Part shown: positions 1,456 through 12,205 of the stretch, piece after piece | How positions within the stretch are numbered: position 1 is the stretch's first letter | Layout: each line of letters begins with the position of its first letter | Virus record (IMG/VR): IMGVR_UViG_3300032224_001149 | Location: 1-39,337 of that record | DNA: 39,337 nucleotides | DNA from: a virus | Direction: 5' to 3' (one strand) | Made by a program: the position numbers and the translations under genes | The notes under the pieces: model-generated | What the model was told of the DNA's origin: nothing | Databases searched by the model: none | The model's input: only the letters and a program-made list of their open reading frames with translations

Positions 1456-1547
1456 GCCCCTGTAGTTTAACGGTAAAACGGCGGATTTATATCCCGTAAG
1501 CAACAGATAATTGGTTCATGTGGGTTCGATTCCCGCCGGGGGTACCA
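1456..1547 (+). tRNA. atypical tRNA, anticodon loop TTTATAT (TAT, Ile if standard)
   Basis: The acceptor GCCCCTG/CGGGGGT, D-stem GTTT/AAAC, T-arm GTGGG/CCCGC with loop TTCGATT and encoded CCA are all clear. The anticodon stem GCGGA/CCCGT has an A-C mismatch next to the loop. The loop reads TAT in the standard register. Between anticodon and T arms there is a 22-nt variable region, far longer than in an Ile tRNA. Identity is uncertain: a class II tRNA with altered anticodon or an Ile tRNA with an insertion. Confidence 0.65.
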
Positions 1548-8202: not shown

Positions 8203-8380
8203 GTTAGGATCGGTTCAGCAAAATAAATTATTATATGGACTGCTGGTAATATTGGGTATAGTTGGAGTTCAGAGGTTCGCCCGAGAATGTTGAAGGTTAT
8301 ACTTGAAGATAGAACCAGATAAAGGAGTTTCGATAAGTCTCCTTGAAAAAAACAAAAAGTAGGCAACGATCCTGTTAAAC
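8203..8380 (+). ncRNA. structured RNA element A (AGGAT/ATCCT family)
   Basis: The ends pair: AGGATCG at 8206-8212 with CGATCCT at 8367-8373. The 5' strand is followed by the conserved CAGCAA (8216-8221), and the 3' strand by GTTAAAC. Inside are the hairpins GGTT/AACC (8295-8316) and AAGGAG/CTCCTT (8322-8344). It shares blocks with elements at 9231 and 9527. It is either a free RNA, a candidate ligand of the Ro-like protein, or the 5' leader of the gene at 8385, whose ATG stands 12 nt after the helix. No coding frame explains this interval. Confidence 0.6.
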
Positions 8381-8384
8381 TAAA

Positions 8385-8636
8385 ATGGAATACATTGTAA
8401 CTTTTCTTGCAGTGTTTGTTACTGATTTGATGTACGTTTATTTCGTAAAGTCAATTCAAAATAACAAACCTTGGTTCGCCGCTTGGTGGAGCATGGTTGT
8501 GACATTCACTGCCAGTGTTGCAATTATTAATTATACCACAGACCATTGGACCTTGATACCTGCACTACTTGGTGCATTTTTTGGCACATGGGTTGGGATG
8601 AAGATTAAATTAAAGGAACAAAATGCCATTCGATAA
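8385..8636 (+). CDS. small membrane protein, three predicted TM helices
   Basis: 83 residues with hydrophobic segments at about 3-21, 32-50 and 55-73, and a short basic tail (KIKLKEQNAIR). The sequence DLMYVYFVKSIQNNKPWFAAWW and the PALLGAFFGTWVGM end are typical of a small membrane protein family widespread in phages, without known function. It would sit in the inner membrane. No Shine-Dalgarno sequence; RNA element A ends just upstream. Its end overlaps the rubrerythrin start by 14 bases. Confidence 0.8.
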   Translation: MEYIVTFLAVFVTDLMYVYFVKSIQNNKPWFAAWWSMVVTFTASVAIINYTTDHWTLIPALLGAFFGTWVGMKIKLKEQNAIR

Positions 8637-9087
8637 AGTATCAAAAACAATGGAGAATCTCGAAAGCGCACTTGCTGGTGAGTCAATGGCTCATATTAAG
8701 TATCGCTATTTCGCAAAGATTGCACGTGAAGAAGGGTTTGAAGAAGTCGCCAAGCACTTCGAACATACAGCGGATCAGGAAATCCTACATGCTTGGGGAC
8801 ATTTAGAATTGCTAATTGGCAAGCCAACAACCAAAGAATGTCTTGAAAAAGCCATTGAAGGTGAGACTTATGAGTTTACAGTGATGTATCCTCGCATGGA
8901 AAATGCCGCACACAATGAAGGCGATCAAATTGCCTTGAACGAGTTCAGGAATCAAATAGCCGAAAGTGCTGAACATGCCGAACAATTCAAAGCAGTGTTG
9001 GCCAAAGCTGAAAAACGTTTTCATGCTTTGAAGAAAGTTGAAGAACGTCATGCAAAAGCATATACGCAAGTATTGGAGAACATGTAA
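8623..9087 (+). CDS. rubrerythrin-like ferritin-fold protein
   Basis: 154 residues, all helical in outline. Glu20 in SALAGESMAHIKY, EHTADQEILHAWGHLELL and the later AESAEHAEQF give the ExxH-type ligands of a di-iron four-helix bundle. Rubrerythrins reduce hydrogen peroxide with electrons from rubredoxin. The usual C-terminal rubredoxin domain is absent here, but a separate rubredoxin gene starts at its stop codon. The likely role is peroxide defence or iron handling in the infected cell (inference). Confidence 0.88.
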   Translation: MPFDKVSKTMENLESALAGESMAHIKYRYFAKIAREEGFEEVAKHFEHTADQEILHAWGHLELLIGKPTTKECLEKAIEGETYEFTVMYPRMENAAHNEGDQIALNEFRNQIAESAEHAEQFKAVLAKAEKRFHALKKVEERHAKAYTQVLENM

Positions 9088-9221
9088 TGAGCGAAACACA
9101 CGTATGCGTGATCTGTGGTCACGAACACAATGATGAACTAGAAGGCGCTTGGGAAACCTTGCCCGACGACTTTGTCTGTCCAGAATGTGGATGCGGCAAA
9201 GAAGATTACGTAGAAATGTAA
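9087..9221 (+). CDS. rubredoxin, stand-alone
   Basis: 44 residues starting MSETHVCVICGHEHNDELEG. Two knuckles, CVICG and CPECG, about 24 residues apart, hold the Fe(SCys)4 site, with the aromatic and acidic filler WETLPDDFVCP typical of rubredoxin. A third CxC-like Cys (CGCG) follows the second knuckle. The ATG overlaps the TAA of the rubrerythrin gene, so the two are co-translated and the protein is the natural electron donor to it. Slightly shorter than the usual 50-54 residues. Confidence 0.88.
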   Translation: MSETHVCVICGHEHNDELEGAWETLPDDFVCPECGCGKEDYVEM

Positions 9222-9230
9222 TTACTATGG

Positions 9231-9480
9231 TTATAGGATGATTACAGCAATCAAAACAATACTCTGAAACTTCTGCTATAGAAAGTGGTGGCAGCACACA
9301 GTAGAAATACTGTTCTAGAAATAGACACTGATGGAATAGTTGACAGAATGGAAAGACATACTATGTAGCTAGTAGCAGACACAATCACTAGATAGGCAAC
9401 GTGAATCGTTGATAGGGGTCTGGGTGCTATAATTGGCCAGACCAGAATACTAAACAAATTGGCACGTTCATCCTGTTAAC
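9231..9480 (+). ncRNA. structured RNA element B (AGGAT/ATCCT family)
   Basis: The end helix AGGATGA (9235-9241) with TCATCCT (9468-9474) is homologous to that of element A, with two compensated pairs. CAGCAA (9245-9250) and TAGGCAACG (9393-9401) are also shared. Internal hairpins: two adjacent GAAA-capped stems, ACAGTA/TACTGT (9298-9313) and TCTA/TAGA (9314-9325), then GGTCTGG/CCAGACC (9417-9443). There is no coding frame. It lies after rubredoxin and ends 15 nt before the promoter of the Ro-like gene, the position where bacterial Y RNAs are often found. No own promoter is evident. Confidence 0.6.
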
Positions 9481-9489
9481 CAAAACCAA

Positions 9490-9518
9490 TTGACATTATA
9501 TCTGAAATCAGTTATAAT
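9490..9518 (+). promoter_or_regulatory. consensus sigma-70 promoter for the Ro-like gene
   Basis: TTGACA at 9490-9495, 17-bp spacer, TATAAT at 9513-9518. The expected start near 9525 gives a leader of about 83 nt that begins with RNA element C. Confidence 0.88.
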
Positions 9519-9526
9519 AGATTTTT

Positions 9527-9584
9527 AAGGATACTTTCAGCAACTTTAATCTTTCCAAATAGAGAAAAAAGCGTATCCTGTTGC
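9527..9584 (+). ncRNA. structured leader element C (AGGAT/ATCCT family)
   Basis: AGGATAC (9528-9534) pairs with GTATCCT (9573-9579). CAGCAA (9538-9543) follows the 5' strand and GTTG follows the 3' strand, as in elements A and B. GCAAC (9540-9544) could also pair with GTTGC (9580-9584) as a pseudoknot. It begins about 3 nt after the predicted transcription start and ends 18 nt before the Shine-Dalgarno sequence of the Ro-like gene, so it could be an autoregulatory site. Confidence 0.55.
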
Positions 9585-9607
9585 ATAAATCAAAGAAAGG
9601 AGTACTT

Positions 9608-11032
9608 ATGTCAACATTTGTAGAAGCAGTAGCAAACCAAGAAGCCCGTACCACTAATGGTATGAAGGCACGTAAGTCAACAGCCAACGCCTGCGTTGAT
9701 CTGTTTTATAACATCGGTGCAAGCCGTGGTAAGAACATCGTCCCGCAATTCACTGCGGCCTATGTTGAAAACTCCGATCTAGCTTTGCGTATCGCATTGT
9801 GGGCACGTGATGCACGTGGTGGATCTGGCGAACGTGAATTGTTCCGTGCTATCCTAAAGCACTTGGAAAAGACTGACAAGGATGCCGCATTGGCACTGTT
9901 GGCTCGAGTACCGGAAATTGGTCGTTGGGATGACATTTTTGTCTTTTCGGATCAACATTTGAAGTCTGCCGCTTATGTTATGTTGGGCAATGCCCTTCGT
10001 GAACGTAATGGCCTGGCTGCAAAGTGGACTCCACGTAAGGGCGATGTTGCACGTGAAATCCGTGAATTCTTTGGAATGACCCCAAAGCAATATCGTAAGA
10101 GCCTTGTTGCATTGACCAATGTTGTTGAAACACAAATGTGTGCCAACAATTGGGATAACATCAACTACAGTCATGTACCATCCGTGGCACATGCACGTTA
10201 CAAGAAGGCTTTTGGTCGTCATGGTACAACTTATGCAGAATATGTAACTAAGTTGGTTAAGGGTGAGGCTGGTGTTAAAATTAACGCTGGTGCAGTATTC
10301 CCTTACGATGTATTGAAGGGTGCTATCAACCGATACAGCCGTTCAGATATGTCTAAGACTGAATTGGATGCATTGCAAGCCCAATGGGATGCATTGCCAA
10401 ACTTCATCGGTGGTGCTGATGTATTGCCAATGGTTGACAGTTCAGGTTCTATGACTTGTGCGGCAGGTGGACATAACTCTAAGAGTGGTCTGTCTTGTTT
10501 GGATGTTGCAATCTCCCTGGGATTGTATTTTGCAGACAAGAACACTGGTAAGTTCAAGGATACATTCTTGACTTTCAGTCGCACTCCAAAGTTGGTTACT
10601 CTTAAGGGTAACATCAATCAAAAGATTGACCAAATGAACACTGGTGAAGTCGCTAACACCGATTTGAACCGTGCGTTTGATTTGATCCTTAAGACAGCAG
10701 TAGATAACAAGGTACCACAAGCAGAAATGCCAGGTACATTAGTGATCTTCAGTGACATGCAATTTGATGCAGGTGTTCATCACGATGACTCTGCAATCGA
10801 AATGATAGCACGTAAGTACGAAGCGGCAGGTTACGAACTACCTAAGGTAGTATTCTGGAACTTGAACGCCGCATACGGTAACGCACCAGTTAAGTTTAAC
10901 AAGGCAGGTGTTGCGCTAGTCTCAGGATTTAGCCCAGCAGTTGCACAAAGTATTCTTTCTGGCAACTTGGATGACTTCACACCAGAAGCAATCATGTTGA
11001 AGACCGTTATGAAGGATCGCTATTCTTACTAA
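9608..11032 (+). CDS. TROVE/DUF2828-like and vWA domain protein (Ro60/Rsr-like)
   Basis: 474 residues from ATG 9608, preceded by AAAGGAG. The N-terminal helical part carries WARDARGGSGERELFR, GRWDDI and VPSVAHARYKKAF followed by KINAGAVFPYDV, the pattern of DUF2828/TROVE HEAT-repeat proteins. The C-terminal vWA domain has the MIDAS motif MVDSSGSM (Asp277, Ser279, Ser281), with a later NTDLNRA and FSDMQFD as metal-site partners. Ro60/Rsr proteins bind Y RNAs and misfolded RNAs and work with exonucleases. The gene is flanked by structured RNA elements and carries one in its own leader. The DUF2828 subgroup itself lacks a proven RNA ligand, so RNA binding is inferred. Confidence 0.82.
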   Translation: MSTFVEAVANQEARTTNGMKARKSTANACVDLFYNIGASRGKNIVPQFTAAYVENSDLALRIALWARDARGGSGERELFRAILKHLEKTDKDAALALLARVPEIGRWDDIFVFSDQHLKSAAYVMLGNALRERNGLAAKWTPRKGDVAREIREFFGMTPKQYRKSLVALTNVVETQMCANNWDNINYSHVPSVAHARYKKAFGRHGTTYAEYVTKLVKGEAGVKINAGAVFPYDVLKGAINRYSRSDMSKTELDALQAQWDALPNFIGGADVLPMVDSSGSMTCAAGGHNSKSGLSCLDVAISLGLYFADKNTGKFKDTFLTFSRTPKLVTLKGNINQKIDQMNTGEVANTDLNRAFDLILKTAVDNKVPQAEMPGTLVIFSDMQFDAGVHHDDSAIEMIARKYEAAGYELPKVVFWNLNAAYGNAPVKFNKAGVALVSGFSPAVAQSILSGNLDDFTPEAIMLKTVMKDRYSY

Positions 11033-11236: not shown

Positions 11237-12205
11237 ATGACTTTAAAACAAGAAATCCTCAAATATAGCCGCCAAGAAAAAATGCAACCACTTAGTCCGT
11301 GGTTTGACAGTAAGTTTGATGCACTAATTGACAAGGGTGTTTACACAGACCTTCCCAGTCTTGAAGACACAGGTAAACAACTAGTCAGTGGACTAATTGC
11401 TTATGGTAAGAAATACAATATACAATCAGTGGCACTGGGCATGAGTGGTGGTGTGGACAGCGCACTTACAGCGGCATTGTTTAAATCCGCAGGCTGGAAA
11501 GTCACAGGGCTTACTATGCCCATTCATCAAAACCCAGATGAAACTACACGGGGTATTGAAGCCTGCAGGGCACTGGGCATCGCACACAAGCACGTAGATT
11601 TAACCAGTGCATACGATATGTTGTTGGCCAATGTTAAGAGCCACGATTATAAAATTACCAGTGAATCGGAAGCACTGCGTAGAGGTAATTTGCGTGTACG
11701 TCTACGTATGATGACAGTGTACAATGAAGCCAGTGCAATTAAAGGACTAGTGGGCAGTACAGATAACTTCAGTGAGCTGGCGGCAGGCTTTTGGACCTTA
11801 CATGGTGATGTTGGCGACCTTGCACCAATCCAAAGCCTAAACAAGAGTTGGGAAGTTCCTAAACTAGCAGAACTATACGGCGTACCTGTGGAAACAGTGG
11901 AAGCAAAACCCACCGACGGTTTGGGTATCAGTGATGGCGATGAAGATCAATTTGGGTTTAGTTACCTTGAATTTGATATTGTATTGTTATCACTTTGCCA
12001 AATTGGTATGCCTCGAGACAGACAAGAAATTTTGGATTATTTAAATCCTGCTACAGAAGATATTGACAAAGTCAGTAGGATTTTAAATCGTATCAAGGGT
12101 AGTAGCTTCAAAAGACAAAACCCTTATAACTTAGAACACCCACTGCAAACAAATAGATTCATTGGCCTGCGAAATCTTGACACTAGTTTGTGGAATAACA
12201 TCTAG
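11237..12205 (+). CDS. nadE: NAD(+) synthetase
   Basis: 322 residues. SGGVDSA at 70-76 is the ATP-pyrophosphatase P-loop, and GSTDNFSELAAGFWTLHGD followed by DLAPIQ is the deamido-NAD site of NadE. The C-terminal DGLGISDGDEDQFGF matches the conserved segment before the last helices. The length fits the ammonia-dependent form; no glutaminase domain is present. It makes NAD from nicotinate adenine dinucleotide and may refill NAD during infection or against NAD-depleting defences (inference). It has no Shine-Dalgarno sequence and stands alone between a terminator and a late promoter. Confidence 0.92.
   Translation: MTLKQEILKYSRQEKMQPLSPWFDSKFDALIDKGVYTDLPSLEDTGKQLVSGLIAYGKKYNIQSVALGMSGGVDSALTAALFKSAGWKVTGLTMPIHQNPDETTRGIEACRALGIAHKHVDLTSAYDMLLANVKSHDYKITSESEALRRGNLRVRLRMMTVYNEASAIKGLVGSTDNFSELAAGFWTLHGDVGDLAPIQSLNKSWEVPKLAELYGVPVETVEAKPTDGLGISDGDEDQFGFSYLEFDIVLLSLCQIGMPRDRQEILDYLNPATEDIDKVSRILNRIKGSSFKRQNPYNLEHPLQTNRFIGLRNLDTSLWNNI

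What the first reader, a model, noticed from the sequence alone, without database searches (positions are those of the whole stretch)
8203..9584. Three covarying RNA elements around a phage Ro60/Rsr-like gene: a candidate Y-RNA-like or self-regulating system
Seen directly: three sites carry AGGATnn...CAGCAA and close with nnATCCTGTT. The 7-bp helices are AGGATCG/CGATCCT (8206/8367), AGGATGA/TCATCCT (9235/9468) and AGGATAC/GTATCCT (9528/9573). The last two pairs differ in all three yet always complement each other, which is covariation. CAGCAA follows the 5' strand in every copy, as an unpaired motif would. Elements A and B also share TAGGCAACG. The loops are about 154, 226 and 38 nt. Established: bacterial Rsr proteins (TROVE plus vWA) bind Y RNAs, often encoded next to the rsr gene. 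Inference: A and B are Y-like RNAs (or A is a leader), and C is a binding site in the gene's own 5' leader allowing feedback control.
Basis: partly seen in the sequence, partly recalled or inferred. Interest (0 to 1): 0.92.

Follow-up and report, generated by a model that had tools for sequence, protein, structure and literature searches.

The report
Phage Ro60 protein's own RNA family
Three matching RNA hairpins beside a phage gene for a Ro60-like RNA-binding protein belong to a large, apparently undescribed RNA family that travels with this protein in phages of many bacteria and often carries imitations of transfer RNAs, so it may open a new branch of Ro60–Y RNA biology to simple laboratory tests.

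Summary
All three helices and CAGCAA motifs lie where stated; shuffled windows never reach three. IMG/VR holds hundreds of relatives. When the search left two helix pairs free, 140 of 144 distinct viral hits paired there, against 8 of 109 in cellular genomes. A model built only from distant isolate phages finds exactly one hit in the window, element C. The neighbouring protein (Pfam DUF2828+DUF7788) folds like TROVE/Ro60; the top four PDB matches are all Ro60/TROVE. Stem-CAGCAA RNAs lie next to this gene in Felix O1-like, mycobacterial, Listeria, Staphylococcus, Campylobacter, Enterococcus and Sinorhizobium phages. Best explanation: a phage Ro60-type RNP, with A and B as cognate Y-like RNAs and C as a feedback site in the gene's leader. 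Rfam's Dictyostelium class I RNA model hits these elements (8 of 11 contigs, 0 of 14 control genomes). RNA binding, stability and splicing are untested; preprints could not be searched.

The parts
8206..8373 (+). Element A: Y-like RNA candidate; 7-bp terminal helix 8206-8212/8367-8373, CAGCAA at 8216-8221, 154-nt payload with an internal hairpin (GGAG..CTCC)
   Evidence: homologous elements of about 100-170 nt in relatives, helix types AGGATCG, AGGTTAG, AGGCTAG
9235..9474 (+). Element B: Y-like RNA candidate; helix 9235-9241/9468-9474, CAGCAA at 9245-9250, 226-nt structured payload
   Evidence: relatives with helix AGGATGA, TGGATGA, TGGATGG, GGGATGT
9490..9518 (+). sigma70-like promoter TTGACA - 17 nt - TATAAT; predicted start near 9525, three nt before element C
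   Evidence: read from sequence; similar promoter upstream of C in many relatives
9528..9579 (+). Element C: leader element of the Ro60-like gene, proposed autoregulatory site; helix 9528-9534/9573-9579, CAGCAA 9538-9543
   Evidence: only hit in the window of CM R1 built from distant isolates, 33.9 bits, E 1.5e-4; Rfam RF01414 full length, 30.3 bits, E 0.0027 over the 1.5-kb region
9597..9602 (+). Shine-Dalgarno AAGGAG of the Ro60-like gene
   Evidence: sequence
9608..11032 (+). Ro60-like protein, 474 aa, Pfam DUF2828 + DUF7788, phrog_850; intact MIDAS residues D277/S279/S281, T351, D383

Best explanation
The region encodes a phage ribonucleoprotein of the Ro60-Y RNA type. The 9608 protein has the TROVE ring plus vWA fold (shown by prediction and fold search). 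Its cognate RNAs are marked by a terminal 7-bp helix of free sequence followed on the 5' side by N3-CAGCAA (covariation shown); binding of the protein to this mark is inferred from co-occurrence and adjacency. A and B are Y-like RNAs whose payload decides what the particle does; C, at the 5' end of the gene's mRNA, lets the protein repress its own synthesis (inferred). In relatives the same mark is grafted on tRNA-derived RNAs: permuted tRNAs, lone anticodon arms, tRNA bodies without an acceptor, and complete tRNAs interrupted near the anticodon. Most likely these mimic tRNAs for enzymes that attack or modify anticodons (inferred, weakly), and the Ro60-like protein stabilises or presents them.
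For: Non-circular covariation 140/144 vs 8/109. Fold: AF2 pLDDT 87.8, pTM 0.87; PDB top four 9kop TROVE, 9l5y Ro60 of Thermus phage phiLo, 1yvr Xenopus Ro, 2nvo D. radiodurans Rsr. Elements on the gene's strand near the gene in 77/80 close and 64/80 more distant (about 50% identity) relatives, 232+138 plus versus 2 minus. Adjacent in 8 of 10 phages sampled across the family at 28-44% protein identity. 18 of 22 contigs found by RNA pattern alone carry phrog_850. In the cellular control loci, the one with several model hits (L495) also has the gene and tRNAs. Leader element in 74/76 and 42/77 relatives versus 72/4680 control stretches. Distant-phage model finds only C in the window. Vibrio phage 1.081.O: the leader stem includes the start codon.
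Against: No transcript, binding or stability data. Pfam TROVE does not match by sequence. A and B show no tRNA-like or YrlA match. S13-like relatives have a leader element in only 3/74 and any element nearby in 11/77; Aeh1 and Erwinia phage 47 have none within 1.5 kb, so the partnership is not universal near the gene. The anticodon-decoy role rests only on sequence.
Confidence: 0.75

Rival explanations
1. The mark is the core of a new small intron class. Complete tRNAs interrupted by 41-54 nt are spliced, and the permuted copies (helix opened at its GNNA loop) splice to circular RNAs; the Ro60-like protein is a splicing chaperone.
For: About 28 inserts in complete, mostly CCA-ended tRNAs (Asp, Glu, Gly, Asn, His, Tyr, Ser, Met, Thr, Lys); removal restores a canonical anticodon arm although the site is often inside the 5' strand (27/28 to 31/32). 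Both stem halves change together across the insert, e.g. ACG|GC with GCCGT, CGT|CC with GGACG, CTT|CC with GGAAG. 128 of 169 permuted payloads close as circles into a tRNA. Linear and permuted copies share boundaries (ACG|TAAA..|GCC).
Against: Joins were chosen to fit a tRNA, so part of the fit is selected and no shuffled control was run for it. No close intron-less homolog. Phage RNA ligases mostly absent: RtcB 1/22, Rnl1 3/22, Rnl2 6/22. Many payloads are not tRNAs; interrupted tRNAs can duplicate intact ones (Gly-UCC in S13, Asn-GUU and Met-CAU in BUCT-ZZ01).
Confidence: 0.3
2. The elements are only cis-acting leader or processing hairpins in phage tRNA and mRNA transcripts, with no dedicated protein partner.
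For: C is a leader element at a promoter; many others lie between tRNA genes.
Against: Payloads with conserved folded tRNA domains, adjacency to one protein family in unrelated phages and 18/22 co-occurrence are not explained.
Confidence: 0.1
3. They are ordinary permuted tRNA genes that yield functional tRNAs.
For: The S13 element carries an encoded CCA between acceptor strands; T, D and anticodon arms are intact in many.
Against: Most permuted copies have capped acceptor stems without CCA; others are lone anticodon arms, acceptor-only or acceptor-less; window A, B and C match no tRNA.
Confidence: 0.05

Closest known systems
Bacterial Ro60 (Rsr) with Y RNAs, Rfam YrlA RF02553
   Same: TROVE-vWA fold; RNA genes beside the protein gene; terminal helix; permuted tRNA-like domain in several relatives, full-length YrlA matches up to 4e-11
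   Different: Protein is DUF2828/DUF7788 by sequence; recognition mark N3-CAGCAA; YrlA scores stay below gathering (48.9 vs 69) and 9 of 14 control genomes also give sub-threshold hits; window A, B and C have no YrlA match
Dictyostelium class I RNAs, Rfam RF01414 (PMC7919456)
   Same: Short covarying stem joining the 5' and 3' ends, conserved motif ending CAGCAA next to the 5' strand, variable payload, about 60 nt, UG after the stem; the model hits phage elements in 8/11 contigs and 0/14 control genomes, and all nine hits checked coincide with our elements
   Different: Eukaryotic; scores below gathering (up to 35.4 vs 41.5); known binder Rnp1A is an RRM protein; no Ro60-like partner reported
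Ro60 of Thermus phage phiLo, PDB 9l5y
   Same: Phage-encoded Ro60 fold, second-best structural match
   Different: About 16% identity; its RNA partners are unknown to me, no paper held
Mycobacteriophage 'Ro-like RNA binding protein'
   Same: Homolog of the window protein at 33-34% identity, with three stem-CAGCAA RNAs just downstream in phage Archie
   Different: These RNAs are not annotated in the record

Membership tests
Ro60/Rsr protein | TROVE ring plus vWA fold | tested here: met
   Foldseek PDB top four are TROVE/Ro60, E 2.9e-8 to 5.4e-7
Ro60/Rsr protein | Pfam TROVE sequence match | tested here: not met
   Only DUF7788 and DUF2828 match; NCBIfam none
Ro60/Rsr protein | MIDAS metal site in the vWA domain | tested here: met
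   D277, S279, S281, T351, D383 invariant in 49 sequences
Ro60/Rsr protein | Binds Y RNA and misfolded RNA | not testable with these tools
   needs binding assays
Bacterial Y RNA (YrlA) | Encoded beside the Ro60 gene | tested here: met
Bacterial Y RNA (YrlA) | 5' and 3' ends joined by a conserved helix | tested here: met
   (108 is partly circular, since the copies were chosen for pairing)
Bacterial Y RNA (YrlA) | tRNA-like domain | tested here: inconclusive
   present in many relatives, absent from window A, B and C
Bacterial Y RNA (YrlA) | Reaches Rfam gathering score | tested here: not met
   best 48.9 of 69 bits
Dictyostelium class I RNA | Terminal stem plus 11-nt motif adjacent to the 5' strand | tested here: met
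   alignment of C to the family consensus, one motif base missing
Dictyostelium class I RNA | Reaches Rfam gathering score | tested here: not met
   30.3 and 35.4 of 41.5 bits
Dictyostelium class I RNA | DUSE promoter and Rnp1A partner | not testable with these tools
   eukaryotic features
Group I or II intron | Match to Rfam intron models | tested here: not met
   none among hits in loci with interrupted tRNAs

The most novel reading that the evidence does not exclude
The stem-CAGCAA module is a new minimal intron (41-54 nt) of phage tRNA genes, unrelated to group I and II introns, and its permuted form makes circular RNAs, many of them closed tRNA mimics with a switchable middle anticodon base that act as decoys for anticodon-cleaving defences. 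Dictyostelium class I RNAs would be a eukaryotic offshoot of the same Ro60-type RNP.
Probability: 0.25. Interest if true: 0.97.

Novelty: new variant of a known kind. Interest (0 to 1): 0.86.

Why it matters
If the RNP reading is right, a widespread and little-studied phage protein family gains its RNA partners, with isolate phages of E. coli, Mycobacterium smegmatis and others ready for testing. Most bacterial Y RNAs known so far are single tRNA mimics; here one phage carries many different payloads on one mark, which makes it testable what Ro60 particles do. The anticodon-mimic payloads suggest a role against tRNA-targeting defences. The match with Dictyostelium class I RNAs, reported as unique to dictyostelids, suggests a testable link to a Ro60-type partner in eukaryotes.

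Tried and rejected
Rfam at gathering thresholds: only tRNAs in the window. The TAGGCAACG 9-mer shared by A and B as a functional motif: rejected. An RNA ligase carried by the phage as the obligatory partner: rejected, RtcB 1/22, Rnl1 3/22, Rnl2 6/22. Close intron-less homologs of interrupted tRNAs: none found. A search for the elements in cellular genomes: 117 stretches matched, 109 distinct hits counted, near-chance pairing at the free positions, and the one clear exception (L495) carries the Ro60-like gene. Single simple fold for A and B: RNAalifold gives few covarying internal pairs, so payload folds stay open. PDB sequence search of the protein: nothing. Literature searches for phage permuted tRNAs, small tRNA introns, DUF2828, and Ro60 with phage: nothing describing this. 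Covariation counts on A2 are partly circular because copies were picked for pairing; one search is the clean test.

Full report
Observation. The three sites are as described. Coordinates: A 8206-8373, B 9235-9474, C 9528-9579, all on the + strand. The combined motif appears three times on + and never on -, against a mean of 0.1 and a maximum of 1 in 200 dinucleotide shuffles of the window. The shared TAGGCAACG is a coincidence: in A it touches the closing helix, in B it lies in an internal hairpin, and relatives do not keep it.

The protein. The 9608-11032 product matches Pfam DUF2828 and DUF7788 and PHROG 850 'RNA-binding protein', not TROVE. A model from 49 viral homologs matches, in the PDB, first the TROVE domain entry 9kop, then Ro60 of Thermus phage phiLo (9l5y), Xenopus Ro (1yvr) and D. 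radiodurans Rsr (2nvo). The vWA metal site is invariant. GenBank calls the mycobacteriophage homologs 'Ro-like RNA binding protein'. So 'Ro60-like' stands on fold and annotation.

A large family. In IMG/VR the motif recurs around homologs of this protein and in DNA-pattern scans that ignore the protein: 488 distinct elements with 38 helix sequences in 243 loci after these first scans. The clean test is: the scan pattern fixes five pairs and leaves two free; both free pairs are Watson-Crick in 140 of 144 distinct viral hits, with 13 combinations, against 8 of 109 in cellular genomes, close to the 1/16 expected. The cellular locus with several model hits, L495, turned out to carry the Ro60-like gene and tRNAs.

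Partnership with the protein. Of 22 large contigs found by RNA pattern, 18 carry PHROG 850; the other four are fragments of 102-184 kb. The profile also rings in 6 of 14 cellular control genomes, so this count alone is not specific; adjacency is the stronger evidence. Elements lie on the gene's strand near the gene in 77/80 close relatives, 64/80 at about 50% identity and 11/77 of the S13-like group. In a spread of ten isolate phages, eight have one to four elements within 1.5 kb of the gene, among them Felix O1-like (Ro111lw, Mordin), mycobacteriophage Archie, Listeria AG20, Campylobacter F352, Staphylococcus CoN_Ph11, Enterococcus ZJGS2 and Sinorhizobium phiM7; Aeh1 and Erwinia 47 have none there. 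A covariance model built from 16 isolate elements (sequences chosen for pairing) finds exactly one hit in the 39-kb window, element C (33.9 bits, E 1.5e-4), and two further perfectly paired elements in S13 and Ci1 that the exact pattern had missed.

Element C as a leader. A TTGACA-N17-TATAAT promoter (9490-9518) would start the mRNA about three nt before C (read from the sequence). A comparable element precedes the gene in 74/76 close and 42/77 further relatives, against 72/4680 control stretches. In Vibrio phage 1.081.O the closing strand of the leader stem contains the start codon. Feedback control is therefore the natural inference; it is not shown.

Payloads. Many relatives carry tRNA pieces inside the helix: lone anticodon arms; a permuted tRNA in the order anticodon arm, T arm, acceptor, D arm; tRNA bodies without an acceptor. 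As circles, 128 of 169 such payloads fold into a tRNA by ARAGORN, with the junction at many positions. The joins were chosen for fit and no shuffled control was made, so the number is an upper view. In one family of 47 elements the anticodon is GNA with a nearly free middle base (GUA 19, GGA 9, GAA 7, GCA 4) in an otherwise nearly fixed arm; lone arms favour UNU (UUU 35, UGU 22, UCU 14). Few of these permuted copies have a CCA end, so decoding is unlikely for most; anticodon-reading enzymes or nucleases are the obvious readers (inference). The sequence just upstream of the helix pairs with the acceptor cap loop in that family and changes with it (GACCA/UGGUC, AUACC/GGUAU, UUACC/GGUAA).

Interrupted tRNAs. 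The same module, with the helix closed by a short loop, interrupts complete tRNAs in isolates S13 (Thr, Gly), BUCT-ZZ01 (Met, Asn), Ahp1 (Asn) and Ci1 (Lys, Glu) and in many metagenomic phages. Removal restores canonical anticodon arms, and bases on either side of the insert change together. This fits a new small intron. Against it: no intron-less homologs, few phage RNA ligases and redundant copies in two phages. I keep splicing as a rival at 0.3.

Known relatives. Rfam YrlA matches several permuted elements full length below its gathering score, and sub-threshold YrlA hits also occur in 9 of 14 control genomes, so the resemblance is mainly the tRNA-like body. Rfam RF01414, Dictyostelium class I RNA, matches C and hits elements in 8 of 11 phage contigs and none of 14 control genomes; all nine hits I checked coincide with our elements. 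Class I RNAs have a short covarying terminal stem and an 11-nt motif next to its 5' strand (PMC7919456). Scores stay below gathering, so I claim resemblance, not membership; a shared Ro60-type partner is a lead only.

Verdict. A real, large and apparently undescribed RNA family tied to a phage Ro60-like protein. The literature check is limited: no preprints are held and the phiLo structures of 2025 have no paper in the library.

Noticed in passing
L025 2346-2459 and 46 similar elements: Permuted tRNA mimics keep nearly the whole anticodon arm fixed but vary the middle anticodon base almost freely (GNA); lone anticodon arms do the same with UNU.
   Followed up: partly
L152 (-) 2742; L127 10661; L227 (-) 945; L232 (-) 3959: tRNA-like genes without an anticodon arm, and acceptor-only minihelices with CCA, carry the same stem-C(A/T)GCA insert.
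   Followed up: partly
L254 4396-4638, L250 4391-4625: GenBank annotates these interrupted tRNAs in phages S13 and Ci1 as tRNA-Ser, tRNA-OTHER or pseudo-tRNA; they read as Thr(GGU) and Gly(UCC) in S13, Lys(CUU) and Glu(UUC) in Ci1.
   Followed up: yes
L253 2463-2510: In Vibrio phage 1.081.O the stem-CAGCAA leader contains the Shine-Dalgarno in its loop and the start codon in its closing strand.
   Followed up: no
L551 4255-4503; L556 1-1078: RNA ligase genes (tRNA splicing ligase in Listeria AG20, putative RNA ligase in Erwinia 47) lie close to the Ro60-like gene.
   Followed up: no
L495/L524: A 186-kb contig in a Hyphomicrobiales MAG carries this Ro60-like gene, tRNAs and at least three elements; probably a phage contig.
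   Followed up: partly
window 8623-9221: Rubrerythrin-like and rubredoxin-like genes lie between A and B; an NAD synthase gene follows at 11237.
   Followed up: no
window 1456-1547: The 92-nt tRNA called Ile(tat) by ARAGORN has an unusually long variable region; its identity is doubtful.
   Followed up: no
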